Source: Nostoc sp. JL33 (GTDB lineage Bacteria > Cyanobacteriota > Cyanobacteriia > Cyanobacteriales > Nostocaceae). From it: a stretch of 64,000 nucleotides of DNA. The position numbers and the translations under genes were made by a program. Below are positions 53,364-64,000 of this stretch, one piece after another. Numbering within the stretch: the stretch's first letter is position 1; the number at the start of each line of letters is the position of its first letter. Where the stretch lies: positions 1 to 64,000 of the forward strand of contig NZ_JABXKP010000097.1 of the NCBI RefSeq assembly GCF_017114985.1, in the 5' to 3' direction. The notes beneath the pieces were generated by a model. The model saw only the letters and a list, made by a program, of their open reading frames with translations. It was not told the origin of the DNA and did not search any database.

Positions 53364-54281
53364 ATGGACTTGCCAATTATTTACCACCCAGATTACATTG
53401 CTCCCCTACCTGAAGGGCATCGCTTCCCGATGTCTAAGTTCCGACAACTCTACGAATTGCTGTTAGCTGATGGTGTAGCTAATCAAGAACAATTTCACAC
53501 CCCGGAACGTCCACCGCCAGAATTGATAAAGTTAGTCCATACCCCAAACTATGTTCAAGCTTATTGCGAAGGAACCCTAGATGCCAAAGCACAGCGTCGC
53601 ATTGGTTTGCCTTGGAGTCCAGCATTAGCGAATCGTACTTGTGTAGCGGTAGGTGGTACGATACTCACTGCTAAACTGGCACTAAGTCAGGGTTTAGCTT
53701 GTAATACTGCTGGTGGAACTCATCATGCCTTTCCTAGTTATGGGTCTGGTTTTTGTATTTTCAACGATTTAGCGATCGCCTGTCGCGTTTTACAAAAACT
53801 TGGACTTGTCCAAAAAATCCTAATTGTGGATTTGGATGTTCATCAAGGAGACGGCACCGCTTTTATCTTCCAAGACGACGACAGTGTTTTTACTTTCTCC
53901 ATGCACTGCGAAGTGAATTTCCCCGGTACTAAACAAAACAGCGATTTGGATGTTGCTTTGCCAGTGGGAATGGAGGATGACGCTTATTTACAAACCTTAG
54001 CGAATTACTTAGCAGATTTATTAACTAAAGTCAAGCCAGATTTAGTATTTTATGATGCAGGTGTAGATCCTCATATAGGCGATCGCTTGGGCAAATTAGC
54101 CTTAACTGATGCTGGCATTTTTCGCCGGGAAATGCAGGTTTTAAGTACTTGTATGAGTAGCGGTTATCCCGTCGCCTGCGTCATTGGTGGCGGTTATACT
54201 GATGATATGAAATCCCTCGTTTGGCGGCATTCCCTATTGCATCGCGCCGCTAGTGAAGTTTATCAGCAGTACAAACTTTGA
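53364..54281 (+). CDS. histone-deacetylase-family protein
   Basis: 305 aa, zinc deacetylase of the arginase/HDAC fold, closest in appearance to HDAC11/class IV and bacterial acetoin-utilisation-like enzymes. Catalytic pieces: GGTHHAFPSYGSGFCIFND (His pair and the oxyanion region), DLDVHQGDGTA with the zinc Asp/His, YDAGVDPH with the second Asp and GGGYT at the end. Probably removes acetyl groups from polyamines, lysines or small molecules; bacterial relatives have mixed substrates. A cyanobacterial standard gene. Monocistronic, 119 bases before the helicase gene. Confidence 0.92.
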   Translation: MDLPIIYHPDYIAPLPEGHRFPMSKFRQLYELLLADGVANQEQFHTPERPPPELIKLVHTPNYVQAYCEGTLDAKAQRRIGLPWSPALANRTCVAVGGTILTAKLALSQGLACNTAGGTHHAFPSYGSGFCIFNDLAIACRVLQKLGLVQKILIVDLDVHQGDGTAFIFQDDDSVFTFSMHCEVNFPGTKQNSDLDVALPVGMEDDAYLQTLANYLADLLTKVKPDLVFYDAGVDPHIGDRLGKLALTDAGIFRREMQVLSTCMSSGYPVACVIGGGYTDDMKSLVWRHSLLHRAASEVYQQYKL

Positions 54282-54400
54282 TGCAACATGACTTATTGCA
54301 AAAATTTTGGTTTATTATCTGGAACCACAGATGAATTACCTGTTTCATCTGTGATTTGATTTTCCTAAATAGAAAACTTTGTCGGCAAAGGCAGTACTGG

Positions 54401-57400
54401 ATGAACAACGGCAAACTCAGAATCTACGAACTAGCTAAAGAATTGAATTTGGATAGCAAAAAGCTATTATTAATTTGCGAAAAGCTCAAAATTGCAGTCA
54501 AAAGCCATACCAGTACAATCTCCGAATCCGATGCAGAACGCATTCGTTTAGCGGTAAATAAACTAACAGCAAAGTCCTCGAAAATTAAAACAAACTCTGA
54601 AGATTGGGGCTATATGTTTATAGCTTCAGCAATTGATAGTTTTATCCGCCATCTTGAAGGTGAAACTGCCTTGAAATCATATCCTGAATTTAGGGAGCGG
54701 CGCGATCGCGCCAATGAGTTAATGTTGGAATGTGTCGGGAAAAAGCCTTCTCTATTTTATGTGCGTCGCAAGGGTGCAGCAAAAGAGCCTAGAGAAGAAA
54801 TTTGGGATTTGACAATCGCAACAGACAGCGATGATTTTCAGTTACCCGCAAGACTTGAGAAGCTCAAGAAAACATTAGGATTTAGAGCGGCTGTACAAAA
54901 AGATGGACGCGGCGGTTTAAAAATACTTTCGGCTCAGTTGTTACAACTCTCACGAGGACACGCCGATAGTTATGCTGTACCTTGTCGCTTACGTTTGCTG
55001 TCTAATCATCAGCATCATCTCGATATTCCGCCAAAGATATTGACACGCATCGCCGCCGCGCCAATCTGTGGCGATCATGTGCCTACAGAAGATCAGCTTA
55101 AAGCTTGGAAAGCCTTTTTGCAAATTGAAGAAAAAATTGCTAAAGCGCGTCAATTTTGCGTGCGTTACGTAAGTCATAACTATAACTTTAAAAGACGAAT
55201 CAGTTTTGAAATTGATGTAGCCTCAGCCACCCTTGACGGCTTTTATCAAAATTCTCTCGATGTAGAAAACTTTTGGGAACGAGCAAGACGCACAAAAAAC
55301 GAAGATTTGAAACTTTTTGAAACTGCTCCTATCGGCAAAAATTGGATTACCGGTCGTCAATTAGGGACTGTTGAAGAAGTTGATCCCAACCGTTGCATTA
55401 TCAGTCTCAGACTAGAGCGCGACTTAGCTGAATATATGGCAGCAGAGCGTTATAAGTTACCAGATATAGGATTTTTGTGTTTTGAGGCAGTTGGTGATAT
55501 TCAACAGATTCAGCGCAAGAAAAAAGCTTTGGATGATTTGAATAATGGTTACACTCAAAATCCATATTTAGGCAACTTTTTATTCGATGCTTCTCAGGCT
55601 AGACAAATCAAAACAACTATCGAACTTCAACCACAGAATTTATTATTATCTTCTGCTAACCCTGGTCAGAAAGCAGCAGTAGAAAAGGTACTTGCCGCCA
55701 AGGATCTTGTTCTCATCCAAGGGCCACCAGGTACTGGAAAAACTACCGTAATTGCTGAGATTTGCTATCAAATTGCCCTTCGCGGTGGACGCACTCTAAT
55801 TGCATCTCAAGCCAATTTAGCAGTAGATAATGCCCTAAGTCGATTAGTTCATAACCCAGTGATTCGGGCTGTACGCAAGGGGAGAGCCGAAAAAGTTGGG
55901 GAGGAAGGACAGCCATTTTTAGAAGACCAAGTGATTGGCAGATGGCTAGAAAATACAGCAAATGACTGCGAAAATAATCTTAATCAACGGCTCGAAAATA
56001 TCCAAATTTTTAGTCAATTAGTGGCATTATCACAAAGATTTACAGCCTACTTCCAAGCCGAGCAAGAATTCAATCAGCAACAAAATAAATTCCATAAAAA
56101 TAAAGTAAAACTAGAGGAAAACTTTAAAACTCAAGAAAAATCTTACAACGAAACCGTAGGAAAAAAGAACGAGGTTGAATCCTTACTTGCAGGTGTAGAA
56201 AACATCCTAAATACTGCACCAAATGTCAACTGGGAAGCTCCAGAAGTTACAGATTTTTTACCACTTCTTAAGCCCTATACAGAAGGCAACAGTTTAGTAG
56301 AAGAATTTTTAGCAAATGTTCGTAAAGCCATCAAATATACTGATGAACTTGGCTTAGTGATACCGAAAGTTGGTGCTTTTGGTTTAGCAGTTTGGTTACG
56401 TGAAATAGCAACAGAAATTTCTGAATTTAAAACCGCTTTTACTTATGCTCAAGATGCAACTGAAGCTATGTCAGAAGTTGCAGTGCGGGTACAGGTTGTA
56501 AAACAGAATTTTGCCTCGTTAAATCAGCTACAACCAGATTACCAGCAATATCTTGCCAAACTGCAAAATATCCAGCAAACAATCCAGATTTGGGAAAACC
56601 GCAAACGGGAAATAGATTATATTATCTCAGCAGTTAAAGAATGGAAATCTACAGCACCTTCTCATCTGTATCAAACTTTGAAAGATTGTCATCAATCAGG
56701 TTTACTACTAACAGAGAATTTGGTAGACTTACCACTAGGTTTATTGATGTTTGCTAACACATTAAAATTACCAATAGTACCAAAAAGTTACAATATTAAT
56801 CTACCAGACTGGGAGTTATTGGCAAAGGCGATCGCTTATGAGATAGACGGAGGTTTTACTGACAGGCGGGGTAAACAGCATAATTTTAGCTACTTTTTAC
56901 AGCAAAATTTTAGTCAGATTCCAATGGTGCTATCAAAGAGCGATACCTACGGTGGGCAAAGCCTACGCACCCAATGGCAAGAAACCTATCAACAGTTTAA
57001 CAATTATCAGCTACTCAACCCCAAACAGCGAAAATTACTAGTTGAGAATACCCAGGTTTTTTTAATTAGAATGCAACGAACTTATGGTGCATCATGGGAA
57101 TGGAATAACATTGATGCTACTCTCACCCGGCTTACACAAGAATTGCTAGATACTATCCTTATAAACGCGCGTGAATGCGTTTTAAAAGTAAAAACTGAAA
57201 CTGAACAACAGCTTCAGCATCTGCAACGACTATTAAATGATCTTCAGAAAAATGAAATCAGCCAACAGCAAATATCTATTACTCAAGCTGAGGTAGAAAA
57301 AGCACAACAAGACGCTAATTTGCAACTTGGACAAGTTATTAATATCTTACAAGAACTTAACCAACAGCCAAATATACCTGCTCAATTACGCATTATAAGT

Positions 57401-58900
57401 GAAAAATATCTCGCAACACAATCGAATATTTGGGAGCAGCCCCAAGAATTCTTAAAGCAAGTGAATCATTGCGAAACTTGCATCACTCAACTTGAAACCT
57501 TAATTTCGTCATTAGAACCTTTTGCTGTGTTGGGGATAATTAAAAATTCTCTAAATGAGCATTTATTAAAACTAAAACAAGAAAGTGAAATTTACTTACA
57601 GGAGCTTCATAAATTACAAAATAATCTCCGCGAGATAGAACAGAAATCACAACCACAGCCATCACAAAATTTAATATTAGAAAGAAGTTGGTGGTTGACA
57701 GAATGGCAAACAATACCGGATAATTTTAAACCAGAAAATTCCGATGCTGACTTATTTAATATAGAGTTATTGCGCGGTCTTCATATTCAGTTTGGATTTT
57801 GGCAAAAGCAACTCGAAAAAGAAGAAAATTATCTCAATAAATATCAGAATTTTGTTCAAGATTGGATAGGAAAATTAAGAAATCCAACTGAAGGCGATCG
57901 CGATGATTTAAGACGGATTTATTTAGATAATGCTAACGTCGTCGGTATCACCTGTGTTCAAGCTGCAAATAAAGGTTTTTCTGAAGAATTCAAATCCTTT
58001 GATGTCGTCATCATTGATGAAGTTAGTAAGTGTACTCCACCAGAGTTACTAATCCCAGCATTGAAAGGCAAAAAGTTAGTGATGGTAGGGGATCATCGAC
58101 AATTACCACCAATGCTTGATACTAGCACTTTAGAAGAAGTCGCTCAAACAATTGGCAACACACGAGATGAACTAAAATTTTTAGAAGAATCACTATTTAA
58201 AAGTCAGTTTGAGTCTGCTGATGAAAGCATCAAACAAATGCTAACTACACAATATCGAATGCATCCATTTATTATGGGAGCAATCAATCAGTTTTATGAT
58301 GGTAAACTAGAATCTGGTATTTTGGAGCCGGATACAAAACGCGCACATCATCTAGCAGGCGAAATCATCCAAGAATCTCAGCATCTTATTTGGGTAAAAA
58401 CGCCTATCGAGAATCAATTTTTAGAGCAAAGAAATGGAACTTCTTACTTTAATACTCCAGAAATTGATGCAATAGAACGTCTGTGTCAGCAGTTCGATAA
58501 TATTTGGGTTTCTAAAGTTGCTAATGGTGAACCAAAAAAAGAAATTGCCGTAATTACATTTTATGGCGCTCAATTAAGGAAAATTGATGAGCGCTTGCAA
58601 TCTGAACTCTTCCCTTCACTAGAAATTCGTACTGGTACAGTAGACCGATTTCAAGGTATGGAACGACCTGTTGTAATTGTTAGTATGGTTCGCAACAATA
58701 GTAAAGGGGATGTGGGTTTTGCGAAGAAACCAGAACGAGTTAACGTTGCATTTTCCCGCGCTCAAGAACTGCTGATAATTGTGGGTTGTCATAATTTATT
58801 TACCCATCAATCAGGTAAAGTCGGAAGTATGTATTCTGAAGTTTCAAATATTGTAAGTCTTCATGGAGGTTTCGTTGATGTTTCTCGCCTCTTCAGCTAA
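54401..58900 (+). CDS. giant SF1 helicase with IF2-N-like start and coiled-coil insert
   Basis: 1499 aa. Residues ~5-55 ([20 protein letters not shown] and following) match the small N-terminal domain of translation factor IF-2. A ~370-residue uncharacterised part follows, then a superfamily 1 helicase of the AAA_11/AAA_12 type: Walker [10 protein letters not shown] near 440, Walker B IIDEVSKC near 1205, motif [11 protein letters not shown] near 1230, motif [17 protein letters not shown] near 1415, motif [13 protein letters not shown] near 1446. Between motifs I and II lies ~700 residues of Gln/Glu/Lys-rich coiled coil. Start 54401 ([10 protein letters not shown]) precedes the IF2-N domain directly. 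Its 3' end overlaps the start of a PLD-type frame. Likely unwinds DNA or RNA; I suspect a defence or repair module with the PLD protein. Confidence 0.85.
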
Positions 58901-58979
58901 ACCTATTGATGACAATCTCAAGAATTATGTAACTGAAATCTTGCACCAGTTCCAACAACCGCCTCAGAATTCATTCTGA
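58878..58979 (+). pseudogene. N-terminal fragment of a PLD-like gene, copy 1
   Basis: ATG 58878 lies in the other frame inside the last codons of the helicase. It reads [20 protein letters not shown], then ILHQFQQPPQNSF and a stop. The first 20 residues match the intact PLD-like protein at 61272 (MFLASSPKPIDENLKKLVDE). GGAGG 9 bases upstream. The rest of the gene is missing. Confidence 0.85.
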
Positions 58980-59372
58980 AGCTAATAGCTAAAGTTTTCT
59001 AAAGAAGACTGAGGAGTGGAGTTGAGCTATCAGCCCAGGATGTTAAGAAATATATCATTAATTAGTATAGTTCTTTACTTAGACAACGATCAAGCTCTAT
59101 TCTTTTTAACTATCATTATCATACAATTTTTATACAATTTTTTGACAGCTTATAATATCAGCACCATACCAGAAAATGTTACTTATGTAACCCTAAATAC
59201 AGCATCATCTGGTATAGAAACTATGTAGACAATCGTGTAGAAACAAGGGTGAGCTATCAAACCCGAATGACCCCACGGCAGAAACAACGTATCGGGATAC
59301 TGACAATCCCGAACTTTCCTAGAATTATCTTTTGAGACTCAGCAATAGATGAATAGTAAATAAAAACATCCT
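58980..59372. other. 393-base AT-rich spacer
   Basis: No convincing gene; a 70-codon frame at 59016 is Ile/Leu-rich junk-like. GAGCTATCA occurs twice (near 59024 and 59251). Confidence 0.5.
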
Positions 59373-60089
59373 ATGTTAGAAAATAGAATCAATAGAAGAA
59401 CTATTCTTCACGGTGCTATCACCTTGACAGGAACATTGGCAGCTGTCCAACTTGCCTCCGCCAAGAAAGCACAGGCGCAGTCTACTTCATTAAGTCAACG
59501 TAAAGGGATTTTGTTAGCGGTAGATTTACAAAATCGCTTTTTGATCACACCTGAATGTGAAGCGGTTGTGTCAAAGGTAGTTAATAATGCTAGTAAGTTT
59601 CATCAGGTTTGGGCAACTCGCTTTTTTAACCGGAATCCTAACTTTTCACGTCAACTCAACTGGAACGAGATGGTGTCTGGACAGGAAACAGAGCTTTCTA
59701 AAACCTTAATTCCGGTTGTCAGCAAAACGTTTGATAAGCCTTCATATTCTCCAATTTCACCTACCTTGCTCCAAGTAAATATTATATCCCGGTTTCTTTT
59801 TTCTCATGCTCATGCTCCTACTTCTTTTGTGATGTCATCTACCCTGCTCCAAGCACTGCAAAATAATGCTATTACTACAGTCGCAGTGTGTGGAGTTGAT
59901 ACAGACGCTTGTGTGATGGCTACAGCTTTAGGACTCTTTGATGCTGGATTTGAGACGTTCGTAGTATCAGATGGCTGTGCTTCTAGTGGTGGGCAGGAAT
60001 ATCATGAAGCGGCGATTAAGATATTGAAACGCAATATTGGAGAGAAATATGTGATTTCTTTTAGCGAATTAGCTGCAATGTTGTCTTAG
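59373..60089 (+). CDS. isochorismatase-like cysteine hydrolase with Tat-type leader
   Basis: 238 aa. The N-terminus NRINRRTILHGAITLTGTL is a twin-arginine-type export signal. The catalytic triad is visible: Asp in AVDLQNRF near residue 50, Lys in KTFDKPSYSP near 118 and Cys in CGVDTDACVMATALGLFDAG near 180. Related enzymes hydrolyse amides or vinyl ethers. A 78-base in-frame insert (26 codons, between two CTACC(T/C)TGCTCCAAG copies at 59761 and 59839) separates Lys and Cys regions and is absent from what I expect of the family. Accessory gene lying inside the helicase/PLD junction. Confidence 0.8.
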   Translation: MLENRINRRTILHGAITLTGTLAAVQLASAKKAQAQSTSLSQRKGILLAVDLQNRFLITPECEAVVSKVVNNASKFHQVWATRFFNRNPNFSRQLNWNEMVSGQETELSKTLIPVVSKTFDKPSYSPISPTLLQVNIISRFLFSHAHAPTSFVMSSTLLQALQNNAITTVAVCGVDTDACVMATALGLFDAGFETFVVSDGCASSGGQEYHEAAIKILKRNIGEKYVISFSELAAMLS

Positions 60090-60096
60090 TGTATAA

Positions 60097-60200
60097 GAGG
60101 GTGTTTGAAAAGTTATGAGTGGTAAAAGTTTATGCTAAACGCTTCACCATGATGCAAATCATAGCAAGATAGATACTCGAATTATTTGAAAAGTGGTTTT
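60097..60200 (-). mobile_element. IS5-type insertion sequence, terminal remnant
   Basis: The minus strand reads NNSSIYLAMICIMVKRLA and a stop at 60130-60132, the usual end of IS5-family transposases (SxxIYLAMIxIMxxRLA). It is followed at its border by GAGGGTGTTTGAAAAG (60097-60112), which looks like the IS end; a similar GAGGATGTTTGAAAAG lies near 15500. The rest of the IS is gone. Confidence 0.6.
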
Positions 60201-60344
60201 GTTGTTAATTAAAGGCTTAGGTGAGAAACAGCAAATATCAAAGGTGAGAAAAAGTAATTTTTAAGCTCTTAGAAAGAAGTTACAATTAAGAAACTGCCCT
60301 CCAAAACTGATTATTTCTCATTTAGAAACAGACTGGAGACTTTT

Positions 60345-60968
60345 ATGACCCCAGCAGCGATGTCTGACGACAAGCCGCAAAGCGTCTACGCTACACCCAC
60401 AAAAGAATCACCCCTTTTGTTTGAAGGACTGACTTGGAGAGAATTCAAAGCAGTTGAGCAGTTATTAGACCGTCCAGGATATCGGCTGTCTTTCCTGGAT
60501 GGTGTTTTGGAGATCCGAAGAATGCCTGGAGAACCCCACGAAACTGTTAAGAAGAGAATTGCCGCATTGTTAGAATTTTACCTGCTCATAGCAGGGTTTG
60601 ACTTTACTCCAACTGGGTCAATGGCCTTAGAAAGTGAATCGGGTGCTGTCAAGCGAGAGGCAGATGAATCTTATAAACTTGCCCCTGGTCGAGTGCGTCC
60701 CGATTTGGCGATCGAGGTGGTGTTTACCAGTGGCGGTATCAACAAACTGGAGGCATACAAGCGGCTGTTGATTCCAGAAGTGTGGTTCTGGGAAGATGGA
60801 GTGTTAGAAGTTTATCACCTGCAAAAAGAAGGCAACGCACTTCACTATGAAAGGGTTTCTAGTAGTGAGGAGGTAAAAGGAATCGATCTGGATTTATTGT
60901 TGCGCTGCATTAATATGGTGAATCATGTTGATGCTATCAAGACTTTTCAGCAGGCGCTTCAGAAATAG
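60345..60968 (+). CDS. Uma2-family protein
   Basis: 207 aa, Uma2/DUF820 family with PD-(D/E)XK-like fold. RLSFLDGVLEIRRMPGEPHE near residue 48 and RVRPDLAIEVVFTSGGINKLEAY near 118 (PD...E.V...K) are the conserved core; VWFWEDGVLEVYHL is the last strand pair. GGAG lies 9 bases before ATG 60345; an alternative Met at codon 6 is possible. Members often swarm around mobile DNA in cyanobacteria. No relation to the helicase is implied. Its stop directly abuts PLD remnant copy 2. Confidence 0.85.
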   Translation: MTPAAMSDDKPQSVYATPTKESPLLFEGLTWREFKAVEQLLDRPGYRLSFLDGVLEIRRMPGEPHETVKKRIAALLEFYLLIAGFDFTPTGSMALESESGAVKREADESYKLAPGRVRPDLAIEVVFTSGGINKLEAYKRLLIPEVWFWEDGVLEVYHLQKEGNALHYERVSSSEEVKGIDLDLLLRCINMVNHVDAIKTFQQALQK

Positions 60969-61025
60969 CTGGCGATTTCTGCTAAACCTATTAATAATAA
61001 TCTCAAAAATTTGACTGGGTTATAG
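60969..61025 (+). pseudogene. N-terminal fragment of a PLD-like gene, copy 2
   Basis: Reads LAISAKPINNNLKNLTGL and a stop, matching residues 3-16 of the PLD-like proteins ([14 protein letters not shown]). Starts immediately after the Uma2 stop. Confidence 0.75.
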
Positions 61026-61030
61026 GAATA

Positions 61031-61135
61031 GCTTCAGGATACGATTTCTTCTTTCCGTGGTCAAATATTGAGGCTGCAACTATTGCAAATCCAGACCATG
61101 ACATAACAGAATTCGGAAGTCGTGCTGAAAAGTAG
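61031..61135 (+). pseudogene. unassigned coding-like remnant
   Basis: Open frame ASGYDFFFPWSNIEAATIAN then PDHDITEFGSRAEK and TAG. Balanced amino-acid use suggests the end of a former gene; I cannot name it. Confidence 0.35.
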
Positions 61136-61195
61136 CAAAACTTAATAATATCTCAAGAATAGCCCCATCAAAAGCCGCACTAACATAAACCTTAG

Positions 61196-61294
61196 AGGAA
61201 GTTTTTCAAGAGATTAACAGTACAAATACAGAACTACATTCAAATCGTGCGTCTACATGGAGGTTTCGTTGATGTTTCTCGCCTCTTCTCCTAA
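61196..61294 (+). pseudogene. 3' end of a second helicase gene
   Basis: The frame reads RKFFKRLTVQIQNYIQIVRL, then [12 protein letters not shown] and TAA. The last 15 residues equal those of the intact helicase ([17 protein letters not shown]). It overlaps the start of the intact PLD gene exactly as the intact helicase overlaps PLD fragment 1. Confidence 0.8.
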
Positions 61295-63104
61295 ACCAAT
61301 TGATGAAAATCTCAAAAAACTGGTAGACGAAATAGAAGCGCAAAGTCTTAGTTTATCAGTTTTAGCAGCGCGTCAATTTCGTTATAGTTTGCGTCAAACT
61401 CCTGTAGAAGTAAATATCAAGGAACCCCGTCAGTTTAACGTACTTGAAGAATTTATTATCCGCGCCGCTATTGAATTTGAACCTCCGCCAACAGAGGATG
61501 AATTAGCCTCTGTACTTGGGCTTGATTCTATATTTATTAAAACTACTACTGCAACTCTTCGGACATTACAAACTCTATCAGCAACATCGCCACTAACAGT
61601 TACTCCTGAAGGCCGCTCATTTTATGAAAAAGGGTCTGTACCACAGCCGCCATATCCTATACAAATTTATGCTATTACAGACCCTTTAAGCGACAATATA
61701 ACCTTTCAATCTGAATCCTTAAATGAGACAACGATAACCTTACCTGACTTGGCAGACTTTATCACTATTGATCATACAATTGCTGATATTGCTTCCTTAC
61801 CCCTTGAGGAAATCCAAAAAAGTATTCAAGCTTCAGGTTTAGCACTTCATGCCCCAGAAGATGGGAAAATCGTCACTTCCTATAGGGTACTAGCTTCGAC
61901 TAAAAAATTTTGGAGAAAGATATCGCTTTTCATTATCTTCGATGCACTTGAAGATAAGTTGAGCATCCAAATAAGAAATGGAAAGCAAATTTTAGAGTCA
62001 GCATCAAACTTGTTGGAAGTGCTACACGCTGAAGGTAAAATATCTTTGCAAGCATTATGTAAAGTGTCAACAGAAACTATCAATTTTGAACGTGAAGCCA
62101 TTCTCAAGCAAAAAAATACTGAAGTAGAAGCTAGACTCGAAAAAATTCGCCAAAAGGCGCTAGAAAATGCTACAAAAACCAGTCAAAAAGTAGATAATTC
62201 TACAGTATTAGGTGAAGCTGTACAGTTACGCGATGGGCAAATTAGCCTAGCTTTTTCAGAAGTTTTAAATTCGGCTAAAAGTCAGATTCTAATCTATTCT
62301 CCTTGGGTTAATCAGGCAGTTGTCAACGAAAAATTTCTAACTCTGTTACAGAAATTAGCTAATCGCAGAGTTTGGATTTTAATTGGACATGGAATTTCGC
62401 GGCGAGAAGAAGATGAAGATAAACCAATTCCACCAGAAGTACAGAAAAAACTTCGAGCGATAAAAACACCTGATGGTTTAGCATCTGTACAGGTTTTTTG
62501 GTTAGGAGATTCTCATGTTAAAGAAGTAATAGTTGATAAACAAATCCATCTTTGCGGATCTCATAACTGGTTATCCTATCGCGGCGATTACCTACCACGA
62601 GGTGAGTCAGTTTATAAAGTTACAATACCACATCAAGTCCAGGAAGCTTATCAATTTCTCGCTAATCGCTTCCAAAATCGCGCTGAAAAATTATGGAAAA
62701 ATTCTCTAGAAAACCGCAATTCTCAACTTGCTATAGAGTCTTTATGTGTGTGGGGTGCGCTAGGTATGGAAGATATTGCACTCAAAGAGATACAGAAAAA
62801 TAATTGGTTTGAACTTCTGCCTGTATGGTTGAATGTAGCACTACAGGGATTAAAATCGAAAAATTTATCAAGTGATTCAGAAAGTTTTAAAACTGCACTT
62901 TTTTTGCTGAGTCAAGTTTCTATTGAAGAAGCTTTTATTGAGCAATTGCAACAGGGATGGCGGAAAGTTATAGGCGCGATCGCTACTAATAATCCTAAAA
63001 CTGCTTTAAACTTACTCAGTGATGAAGTATGGGCGCAGTTTCTACGTCTCAATATTGCCCAAGAGAGTGATTCACCCAATGATTTTATTCTCTCCCGTGA
63101 TTAA
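61272..63104 (+). CDS. phospholipase-D-superfamily protein
   Basis: 610 aa. The first ~310 residues hold a winged-helix-like region (FIIRAAIEFEPPPTEDELAS) and a long charged helix. A PLD domain follows near 325-465, with one HxK-x4-D motif HVKEVIVD near 414 and GSHNWLSYRG near 427, and ILIYSPWVNQAV at its start. A helical C-terminal part of ~150 residues is unassigned. One HKD motif means dimerisation for activity. Starts at ATG 61272 with GGAGG upstream; the start lies in the remnant of a helicase gene, so an overlapping helicase-PLD operon is the ancestral form. PLD nucleases with helicases occur in DISARM-type and other defence loci; the equivalence is inference. Confidence 0.85.
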   Translation: MFLASSPKPIDENLKKLVDEIEAQSLSLSVLAARQFRYSLRQTPVEVNIKEPRQFNVLEEFIIRAAIEFEPPPTEDELASVLGLDSIFIKTTTATLRTLQTLSATSPLTVTPEGRSFYEKGSVPQPPYPIQIYAITDPLSDNITFQSESLNETTITLPDLADFITIDHTIADIASLPLEEIQKSIQASGLALHAPEDGKIVTSYRVLASTKKFWRKISLFIIFDALEDKLSIQIRNGKQILESASNLLEVLHAEGKISLQALCKVSTETINFEREAILKQKNTEVEARLEKIRQKALENATKTSQKVDNSTVLGEAVQLRDGQISLAFSEVLNSAKSQILIYSPWVNQAVVNEKFLTLLQKLANRRVWILIGHGISRREEDEDKPIPPEVQKKLRAIKTPDGLASVQVFWLGDSHVKEVIVDKQIHLCGSHNWLSYRGDYLPRGESVYKVTIPHQVQEAYQFLANRFQNRAEKLWKNSLENRNSQLAIESLCVWGALGMEDIALKEIQKNNWFELLPVWLNVALQGLKSKNLSSDSESFKTALFLLSQVSIEEAFIEQLQQGWRKVIGAIATNNPKTALNLLSDEVWAQFLRLNIAQESDSPNDFILSRD

Positions 63105-63292: not shown

Positions 63293-64000
63293 GTGGTTTT
63301 ATTAAAAGGCTTTGAGATAGAGATATACACTGGCACGCCTCAAGGTGAAATCGTCGGTCTCTCCGACAAAATTGTTGCAGATTTGGATGGATTTATGCGG
63401 GAGCCAGATAGCCGCAATGTCGAATACATAACCCAACCATCCCCTAATTACGATAATTTATTGTGTGCCTTGCTGCGTCCCCGGCGAGAGTTGCGAAACT
63501 ACCTCAATCACTTGGGCGATTACACCCTAATACCGGGGAGTACTTTATCTTTGGGTGGAGGCGATCGCTTTCTACGTTCCGATCCAGCAAACCCTTATCA
63601 TGACTACATTGAGAACACCTACGGGACGAAAGTAGTCACCGCCAGCGTACATATTAATGTCGGCATCAGCGACCCAGAAGTATTAATGCGGGCGTGTCGG
63701 GTAATCCGTATGGAAGCACCTCTATTTCTCGCCCTCAGCGCCTCATCTCCCTTCCTGGATGGCAAAGCTACTGGCTATCACTCCACGCGTTGGGGACTCT
63801 TTCCGCAAACGCCTAGCCATGTACCGTTATTTGCCAGCCACGCCGATCATATCCAGTGGGTGGAAGATCAACTCGCTGCTGGAACCATGCAAAATATACG
63901 ACATTTATGGGCATCAGTGCGACCAAATGGCGATCGCCGTCCCTATGACTTGAATCGCTTAGAATTGCGAATATGCGATTTAGTCACAGATCCCATTGCC
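63293..64000 (+). CDS. gshA: glutamate-cysteine ligase, cyanobacterial type (5' part)
   Basis: 236 codons before the window ends. Starts with GTG in GAGGAGAACAAGGTG. The sequence LLKGFEIEIYTGTPQGEIVG, VTASVHINVGISDPEVLMRA and RWGLFPQTPSHVPLF is the cyanobacterial GshA family, which ligates glutamate and cysteine as the first step of glutathione synthesis. No frame disruption seen. Truncated by the window edge only. Confidence 0.9.
   Translation, partial: MVLLKGFEIEIYTGTPQGEIVGLSDKIVADLDGFMREPDSRNVEYITQPSPNYDNLLCALLRPRRELRNYLNHLGDYTLIPGSTLSLGGGDRFLRSDPANPYHDYIENTYGTKVVTASVHINVGISDPEVLMRACRVIRMEAPLFLALSASSPFLDGKATGYHSTRWGLFPQTPSHVPLFASHADHIQWVEDQLAAGTMQNIRHLWASVRPNGDRRPYDLNRLELRICDLVTDPIA

What the first reader, a model, noticed from the sequence alone, without database searches (positions are those of the whole stretch)
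54401..63104. Overlapping helicase + PLD module, a candidate uncharacterised defence system
A 1499-aa SF1 helicase with an IF2-N-like domain and a 610-aa PLD-fold protein appear as former direct neighbours: a PLD start codon lies inside the last helicase codons, at two places in the locus. Translational coupling of a helicase with a PLD-type nuclease recalls defence islands (helicase plus PLD in DISARM), but I know no named system with this domain order. What is seen: domains, motifs, overlap. Inference: common function and defence.
Basis: partly seen in the sequence, partly recalled or inferred. Interest (0 to 1): 0.75.

Follow-up and report, generated by a model that had tools for sequence, protein, structure and literature searches.

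The report
Mokosh-like helicase with borrowed IF2 domain
This Nostoc locus carries a helicase and a nuclease-type partner related to the known anti-virus system Mokosh, but the helicase wears a copy of the tip of the cell's own translation factor IF2, and the pair is kept in nearly every Nostoc species examined, which hints at a built-in guard tied to protein synthesis.

Summary
In detail: a 1499-aa SF1 helicase (54401-58900), a 610/615-aa PLD protein (61257-63104), and the same helicase-end/PLD-start overlap at 58850 and 61244. The system is not unnamed: PADLOC's Mokosh type I models match both (MkoA 1.5e-114, MkoB 1.1e-28). Outside the genus 52 of 63 helicase/MkoB pairs overlap by 17-38 nt. 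The two junctions are left from two tandem modules: the window keeps helicase A and module B's MkoB, with relics of the other two genes. Unusual: (1) no kinase domain found; the first ~60 residues copy host IF2's N-terminus (DNA 81% over 149 nt), under purifying selection; (2) core-like in Nostoc: helicase full-length or contig-cut in 50 of 53 genomes, MkoB match in 53 of 53; (3) modular: in relatives MkoB's C-terminus is PLD, DarT (with an ADP-ribosylglycohydrolase; three loci inside BREX), unknown, or missing, and the helicase N-terminus varies. Best reading: a Mokosh-type surveillance helicase addressed to translation initiation that drives a PLD nuclease.

The parts
54401..58900 (+). MkoA-type SF1 (UPF1/IGHMBP2-like) helicase with host-IF2-derived N-terminus ('helicase A'), 1499 aa
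   Evidence: ORF; Pfam; PADLOC MkoA 1.5e-114; UPF1/SMUBP-2 chains in PDB; motifs
54401..54595 (+). IF2_N domain (residues 16-80 of the 1514-aa frame); DNA 81% identical over 149 nt to the genome's own infB 5' end
   Evidence: Pfam IF2_N 3.6e-11; own-genome hit to infB; DNA comparison; omega 0.24 in 49 genomes
58863..58979 (+). relic of an MkoB gene start (38 codons and stop, first 29 recognisable) overlapping the end of helicase A
   Evidence: such relics in 12 genus loci, the window included
59373..60089 (+). isochorismatase-family gene lying between the two modules; at this place also in L170 and L178 of the genus loci mapped
60345..60968 (+). Uma2-family gene lying between the modules; recurrent at this place in the genus; matches PADLOC candidate PDC-S17 1.1e-72
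60977..61011 (+). third partial copy of the MkoB start (no start codon)
61244..61294 (+). relic of the last 16 recognisable codons and stop of a second helicase ('helicase B') overlapping the MkoB start
   Evidence: helicase tails of 17 to about 600 codons at the same place in 22 other genus loci
61257..63104 (+). MkoB-type protein: conserved N-terminal part (about 1-285) plus single-HKD PLD domain, 615 aa (610 aa from ATG 61272)
   Evidence: PADLOC MkoB 1.1e-28; HxKx4D
53364..54281 (+). flanking histone-deacetylase-like gene, left border in the genus
63293..64000 (+). flanking glutamate-cysteine ligase family 2 gene (runs off the window), right border in many genus loci

Best explanation
The locus is a cyanobacterial branch of Mokosh type I: an MkoA-like UPF1-type helicase and an MkoB-like protein made of a conserved adaptor part and a PLD nuclease domain. 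It descends from two tandem helicase-MkoB modules; helicase A and the MkoB of module B survive and most likely work together in trans. No Mokosh kinase domain was found on the helicase; it carries a copy of the host IF2 N-terminus instead. I propose that this IF2N part addresses the helicase to the initiating ribosome or initiation-region mRNA; the helicase tracks RNA (or stalled nucleic acid) there, and on an abnormal substrate such as phage transcripts it passes a signal through the MkoB adaptor to the PLD, which cuts nucleic acid. Shown by sequence: domains, motifs, linkage, similarity of the IF2N copy to cyanobacterial IF2, purifying selection, effector exchange in relatives. Inferred: direction of the copy (IF2 to helicase), partnership in trans, ribosome targeting, RNA as substrate, nuclease activity, anti-phage role.
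For: Family: MkoA 1.5e-114, MkoB 1.1e-28. Coupling: 52 of 63 pairs overlap; 66 of 68 co-occurrence. Two-module history: G332 (L177) still has helicase A, helicase B, then MkoB overlapping B; helicase A (50 rows) and B (7 rows) are separate clades, support 99 each; in L181 helicase A itself overlaps the PLD gene. IF2N: of 31 positions conserved in 50 IF2s of the order, 26 keep the same consensus residue in the helicase copies, 21 of them at 90% or more; 120 of 120 genomes have an IF2_N match, so IF2 is the likely donor; omega 0.24 for IF2N, 0.12-0.18 helicase, 0.19 MkoB N-part, 0.26-0.29 PLD part. Effector logic: HxKx4D in 75 of 77 PLD segments; the same adaptor carries DarT followed by an ADP-ribosylglycohydrolase in 4 loci, 3 of them between pglX and pglZ of BREX.
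Against: No experiment. The PLD match is below Pfam's cut-off. Retention across the genus and fixed housekeeping-type flanks are unusual for defence genes. 39 of 114 MkoB N-parts have no PLD part behind them (two of these, L110 and L111, have another C-terminus), so the nuclease cannot be the whole function everywhere. 2 of 77 PLD segments lack HxKx4D, one of them in the genus (G301). IF2N was seen on helicases of only one family among the order genomes mapped. In the IF2N tree helicase B and G094 copies fall among the family's IF2s while helicase A copies form their own group, with few columns and weak support, so one capture is not shown. Joint loss of helicase A and breakage of MkoB in G168 and G293 may be one event, since they are sisters.
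Confidence: 0.5

Rival explanations
1. Domesticated housekeeping machine: in Nostoc the pair is no longer a phage defence but a core RNA-quality-control or DNA-repair/replication-restart device, with IF2N chosen because IF2 itself works at the ribosome and at stalled forks.
For: Helicase full-length in 48 of 53 genus genomes plus 2 cut at contig ends; MkoB match in 53 of 53; both genes kept even where they are far apart, e.g. 1.3 Mb in G240; constant flanks; purifying selection. E. coli IF2-1, the form with the N-terminal extension, is needed for a PriA-helicase-dependent restart pathway (PMC3334882, passages).
Against: Relatives lie in BREX and near restriction genes; 7 of 29 genomes of the family in the order search lack the helicase, and in two of them the HDAC-like and ligase genes are 495 nt (G077) and 1838 nt (G111) apart; effector swapping is defence-like.
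Confidence: 0.3
2. Integrated decoy: the IF2N copy is bait for phage proteins that seize or inactivate host IF2; binding to the bait switches on the helicase-PLD pair, as in plant NLRs with integrated decoys (plant case recalled; search listing only).
For: The copy begins at the IF2 start itself and keeps most of its conserved residues; the helicase N-terminus is an exchangeable slot (IF2N 54, another ~220-aa domain 23, neither 41, undetermined 4 of 122 rows).
Against: No IF2-targeting cyanophage protein is known to me (recalled); IF2N evolves under average constraint (omega 0.24), without the diversification an arms race would be expected to leave; a targeting function explains the same facts.
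Confidence: 0.12
3. Two unrelated survivors: after decay of the tandem modules the helicase and the PLD protein now work independently.
For: They come from different modules and lie far apart in at least 7 genus genomes with both genes intact or short.
Against: 50 of 53 genus genomes keep helicase A and 53 of 53 an MkoB match; overlapping pairs are the rule elsewhere; L181 has an overlapping helicase A-PLD pair.
Confidence: 0.08

Closest known systems
Mokosh type I (MkoA + MkoB)
   Same: Separate SF1 (COG1112/UPF1-like) helicase and PLD-protein genes; PADLOC profiles match both; adjacent and co-directional in relatives.
   Different: No serine-threonine kinase domain found on the window's helicase; IF2N at its N-terminus; core-like distribution in the genus; MkoB C-terminus exchanged for DarT, for an unknown domain, or absent in relatives.
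Mokosh type II (MkoC)
   Same: Helicase and PLD parts both resemble MkoC (2e-32 and 6.8e-12).
   Different: Two genes, not one fused protein.
DISARM (DrmC PLD protein plus helicase)
   Same: Helicase and PLD in one locus.
   Different: DrmC match far below its cut-off; none of 10 window neighbours scanned in PADLOC matched a DISARM protein.
UPF1 / IGHMBP2 (SMUBP-2) helicases
   Same: Helicase core aligns to solved SMUBP-2 and UPF1 chains (2.4e-36 and weaker).
   Different: Long central insert; TIGR00376 score 233 of 348.9 needed; no UPF1-specific domain among the 25 of 32 Pfam families shown.
DarTG toxin-antitoxin
   Same: In four relatives MkoB carries a DarT-type domain and is followed by an ADP-ribosylglycohydrolase.
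   Different: DarT is fused to the MkoB adaptor and sits behind the helicase; the window has PLD instead.

Membership tests
Mokosh type I | COG1112-type SF1 helicase gene (MkoA) | tested here: met
   PADLOC MkoA 382.5 bits, 1.5e-114; motifs intact
Mokosh type I | separate PLD-nuclease gene (MkoB) | tested here: met
   PADLOC MkoB 1.1e-28, residues 49-470 to model 16-444 of 610; HxKx4D; nuclease activity itself untested
Mokosh type I | serine-threonine kinase domain (as described in PMC11672841, passages) | tested here: not met
   No kinase among the Pfam families shown, the best 25 of 32, nor among all 13 PADLOC families listed; the MkoA model's kinase part (6-278, shown by the kinase gene in L057) is not among the parts seen aligned, 619-1082 of 1112
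Mokosh type I | NERD domain (listed for Mokosh type I in PMC10952713, passage) | tested here: not met
   not among the 25 of 32 Pfam families shown for the helicase nor those of the PLD protein
Mokosh type I | adjacent operon | tested here: inconclusive
   Met in relatives (52 of 63 overlap); in the window the two genes are 2.4 kb apart with relics between
Mokosh type I | anti-phage activity | not testable with these tools
   needs phage challenge
Mokosh type II | helicase and PLD in one polypeptide | tested here: not met
   two ORFs
DISARM | DrmC with DrmA/DrmB/methylase (set recalled) | tested here: not met
   DrmC 0.012, 15.1 of 133 bits; no DISARM hits in 10 neighbours
IF2 (infB) | GTPase and C-terminal domains (recalled) | tested here: not met
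   IF2_N is the only IF2 part among the Pfam families shown
IGHMBP2-family helicase TIGR00376 | score above curated cut-off | tested here: not met
   233 of 348.9 bits

The most novel reading that the evidence does not exclude
A genus-wide innate immune device in Nostoc watches translation initiation: a Mokosh-type helicase wearing the host's own IF2 tip, as ribosome address or as bait for phage proteins that hijack IF2, fires a PLD nuclease through a shared adaptor; the same adaptor chassis takes other sensors and other effectors (DarT with its antidote inside BREX), i.e. a plug-and-play immune receptor family.
Probability: 0.17. Interest if true: 0.87.

Novelty: new variant of a known kind. 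Interest (0 to 1): 0.62.

Why it matters
To my knowledge the trigger of Mokosh has not been worked out. A natural version in which the sensor end is a copy of a well-understood host protein tip, and in which the nuclease end can be exchanged for a DNA ADP-ribosylating toxin domain, suggests where sensing and killing sit in the complex and gives direct tests (delete IF2N, swap effectors). It would also be a case of a defence-type module turned into near-core equipment of a whole bacterial genus.

Tried and rejected
Rejected: DISARM membership; that the window's helicase and PLD gene were each other's direct partners; that the TTG at 54356 is the start (the IF2-like start MNNGK at 54401 fits better); that the losses in G168 and G293 count as two independent events (sisters); that different contigs prove separation of the two genes (in G300, G302, G308, G327 and G329 the helicase contig ends too close, so I do not count them; coordinates).

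Led nowhere or weak: the ~220-aa N-terminal domain of other relatives reads to me like a right-handed beta-helix, but Pfam gives nothing usable and PDB only E 0.15-0.16 to AlyGC and NosD (that both are beta-helix proteins is recalled). The IF2N tree (65 columns) does not settle one or several captures. The first labelling run of helicase N-termini failed: its labels all came out empty (probably a wrong program option); it was repeated, and only the tree is used. Phage records held no relative of the PLD protein at 1e-5. Papers: listings for Mokosh, cyanobacteria with Mokosh (2 papers, neither title about cyanobacterial Mokosh), IF2/infB, DarT with BREX and helicase (titles and abstract starts only), 'IF-2 N-terminal domain-containing protein' with helicase (none), integrated decoy with antiphage (4 plant papers), cyanobacteria/Nostoc/PADLOC (none). 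Of 4 papers I saw passages. The original Mokosh paper was not among the listings and is recalled only.
Full report
WHAT IS THERE. The helicase ORF ends at 58900 and, from ATG 54401, codes for 1499 aa; the PLD ORF is 61257-63104. Pfam finds IF2_N (3.6e-11) at the N-terminus and AAA_11/AAA_12 helicase domains; the PLD domain is found only below its cut-off, but one HxKx4D motif and the helicase motifs scanned for are intact. By sequence the helicase core is closest, among solved structures, to SMUBP-2 and UPF1 (2.4e-36 and weaker) and its N-terminus to IF2 (7e-7, residues 19-75); the PLD protein has no solved relative at E up to 1.

THE FAMILY. PADLOC gives MkoA 1.5e-114 and MkoB 1.1e-28, the two proteins of Mokosh type I; the other hits are weaker. 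One paper describes Mokosh as a COG1112 RNA helicase plus a PLD nuclease, in type I as separate genes with an added kinase domain (PMC11672841, passages); a table in another also lists a NERD domain for type I (PMC10952713, passage); a third states that Mokosh degrades viral transcripts and likens it to the piRNA pathway (PMC11291487, passages). The kinase part of one MkoA model lies at its positions 6-278, since a separate kinase-type gene next to the helicase in L057 matches there; the parts of the window's helicase seen aligned cover 619-1082 of that model, and neither kinase nor NERD is among the 25 of 32 Pfam families shown. So, as far as tested, the window is a kinase-less relative.

THE TWO JUNCTIONS EXPLAINED. 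The 90-nt repeat at 58850 and 61244 is the conserved end-of-helicase/start-of-MkoB overlap. In the same genus (by public names of near-identical proteins, Nostoc) the arrangement varies: HDAC-like gene, helicase A, in some an MkoB-start relic, sometimes Uma2 and rarely isochorismatase genes, then whole, partial or tail-only helicase B overlapping the MkoB/PLD gene, then in many the ligase gene. In G332 helicase B is an open 1530-aa frame. By script, 23 of 50 MkoB starts in these loci overlap a detectable helicase tail (one of them, L181, being helicase A itself), 27 do not at that threshold, and 12 loci show the short MkoB-start relic behind a helicase end (the window is in both of the last two counts, because its 16-codon tail is too short for the threshold). 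Helicase A (50 rows) and helicase B (7 rows) are separate clades with support 99 each. The window therefore keeps helicase A of one module and MkoB of the other. A tandem pair of modules between the same two flanking genes also exists in a different family (L051).

LINKAGE ELSEWHERE. Of 291 genomes of the order, 68 have the helicase (E up to 1e-50) and 82 an MkoB/PLD match (E up to 1e-10). Comparing the two lists by eye, 66 of the 68 have both; in the 2 exceptions (G175, G254) the contig ends before the helicase's C-terminus. Of the 16 genomes with an MkoB match but no helicase at that threshold, 14 match only around the PLD domain, one (G193) sits on a 4.3-kb contig and one (G244) matches residues 36-170 only. 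In 70 fetched non-genus loci there were 63 testable pairs: 52 overlap by 17-38 nt, 11 are 104-902 nt apart on the same strand; 9 loci had no testable pair.

GENUS-WIDE RETENTION. Sorting the tables by eye: helicase A is full-length in 48 of 53 genus genomes, cut by contig ends in 2 (G330, G333), broken in G293, absent but for a 160-residue tail next to MkoB in G168, and not found in G296, which is 72% complete. MkoB matches occur in 53 of 53: 42 near full length, 1 cut by a contig end, 8 short without PLD, 2 broken. The 2 broken ones, G168 and G293, are the same genomes that lost helicase A, but they are sisters in a tree of the PLD part, so this may be one event. Helicase A and MkoB lie on one contig but 80 kb to 2.9 Mb apart in G292, G335, G240, G338 and G312, and on different contigs far from their ends in G299 and G311; in all of these but G312 the MkoB gene still has the ligase gene beside it. 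In 7 of 29 genomes of the family the helicase was not found; in two of them, G077 and G111, the HDAC-like and ligase genes are 495 and 1838 nt apart, which looks like an empty site (the DNA between was not read). Of 18 non-genus family loci, 7 have both flanks, 2 only the ligase, 9 neither.

THE IF2 PIECE. A search of the window's own genome finds infB (65% identity, 1.1e-21) as the next match to the helicase after itself, by its N-terminus. At DNA level 149 nt starting 3 nt before the start codon are 81% identical to the genome's own infB; in G094 it is 157 nt at 80%. The copied stretch begins at the IF2 start itself (MNNGK). It occurs in 54 of 122 helicase rows: 49 of the 50 helicase A rows (the 50th is a contig-edge piece), 3 of 7 helicase B rows, G094 and G274; 23 rows have another ~220-aa domain, 41 neither, 4 undetermined. 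G035 shows what looks like an in-frame remnant (KISIYELS joined to SEDWG, my reading). Of 31 positions conserved in 50 IF2s of the order, 26 keep the same consensus residue in the helicases, 21 of them at 90% or more; the 5 others are mild changes. Pairwise dN/dS sums in the genus (41-50 genomes): IF2N 0.24, helicase parts 0.12-0.18, MkoB N-part 0.19, PLD parts 0.26-0.29, HDAC-like gene 0.06. So the copy is maintained, not decaying.

MODULARITY. Of 114 MkoB N-parts, 75 have the PLD part behind them and 39 do not; the tree needs 5 changes. HxKx4D is present in 75 of 77 PLD segments. In G008 (L111, one of the 39) the C-terminus is DarT (Pfam 2.1e-18) and the next gene an ADP-ribosylglycohydrolase (1.1e-45). 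A plasmid of Nostoc sp. C052 has helicase, MkoB-DarT and ADP-ribosylglycohydrolase between pglX and pglZ of a BREX locus; by similarity the same set in the same place is in Nostoc mirabile CHAB5784 and in the chromosome of Anabaenopsis elenkinii. A group of about 470-aa relatives (such as L110, also one of the 39) has a C-terminus without a usable Pfam match in the one scanned. Other relatives lie near restriction genes: an HsdR-type gene next to the L109 pair and an HsdM-type gene 2.9 kb from the L110 pair.

HOW IT MAY WORK. Borne out by sequence: family, motifs, linkage, likeness of the IF2 piece to host IF2, constraint, effector exchange. Inferred: MkoB's N-part is the adaptor that meets the helicase (it is the constant part across PLD, DarT and none); the variable helicase N-terminus is the addressing or sensing end; with IF2N the address is the initiating ribosome or its mRNA. 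E. coli work gives a second possible address, the stalled replication fork, because the IF2 form with its full N-terminus is needed for a PriA-helicase-dependent restart pathway (PMC3334882, passages). Short MkoB forms without PLD suggest that the helicase-adaptor core has a use of its own or recruits a separate effector.

NOVELTY. The family is known; the IF2N version, its near-core status in Nostoc and the DarT-for-PLD exchange did not show up in the listings searched, in a library that lacks most subscription journals. Many public copies are named 'translation initiation factor IF-2 N-terminal domain-containing protein', a label that hides what the protein is.

Noticed in passing
L277:5277-12025, L279, L280: Helicase, MkoB-DarT fusion and ADP-ribosylglycohydrolase sit as a unit between pglX and pglZ of BREX loci in three cyanobacteria.
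   Followed up: partly
L111:5900-12542: Helicase with MkoB-DarT and an ADP-ribosylglycohydrolase; no match to the C052 BREX proteins in the 14.7 kb held.
   Followed up: partly
L110:4968-6386 and proteins P0123-P0143: MkoB relatives of about 456-528 aa without precomputed Pfam domain; the C-terminal part of the one scanned (L110) matches no family at a usable score: a possible further effector.
   Followed up: no
L052, L093, L078, L109 and others (23 of 122 helicase rows): A ~220-aa N-terminal domain of unknown family on other helicases, perhaps beta-helix-like at its start.
   Followed up: partly
L103:11534-12133: A zinc-ribbon-like N-terminus on another helicase relative; Pfam only below cut-off.
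   Followed up: no
L057:13148-15256: A separate gene matching serine-threonine-kinase-type PADLOC models (PD-T4-6, kinase part of MkoA) directly upstream of the helicase.
   Followed up: no
L050:12939-13684: xisH and xisI homologues directly behind the short MkoB gene; ORFs of like size follow it in L049 and L075.
   Followed up: no
L051 and L093: Two tandem helicase-MkoB modules in each of two genomes of another family, in L051 between the same flanking genes as in Nostoc.
   Followed up: partly
L278:377-11881: On an Aulosira plasmid a helicase-MkoB pair lies beside an 876-aa MkoA-like helicase (4.8e-56) and a GajB-like helicase; the paired helicase is annotated as an IF-2 domain protein, yet its first 200 residues as translated do not begin like IF2.
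   Followed up: partly
window 60345-60968: Uma2-family gene, recurrent at this spot in the genus, matches PADLOC candidate PDC-S17 at 1.1e-72.
   Followed up: no
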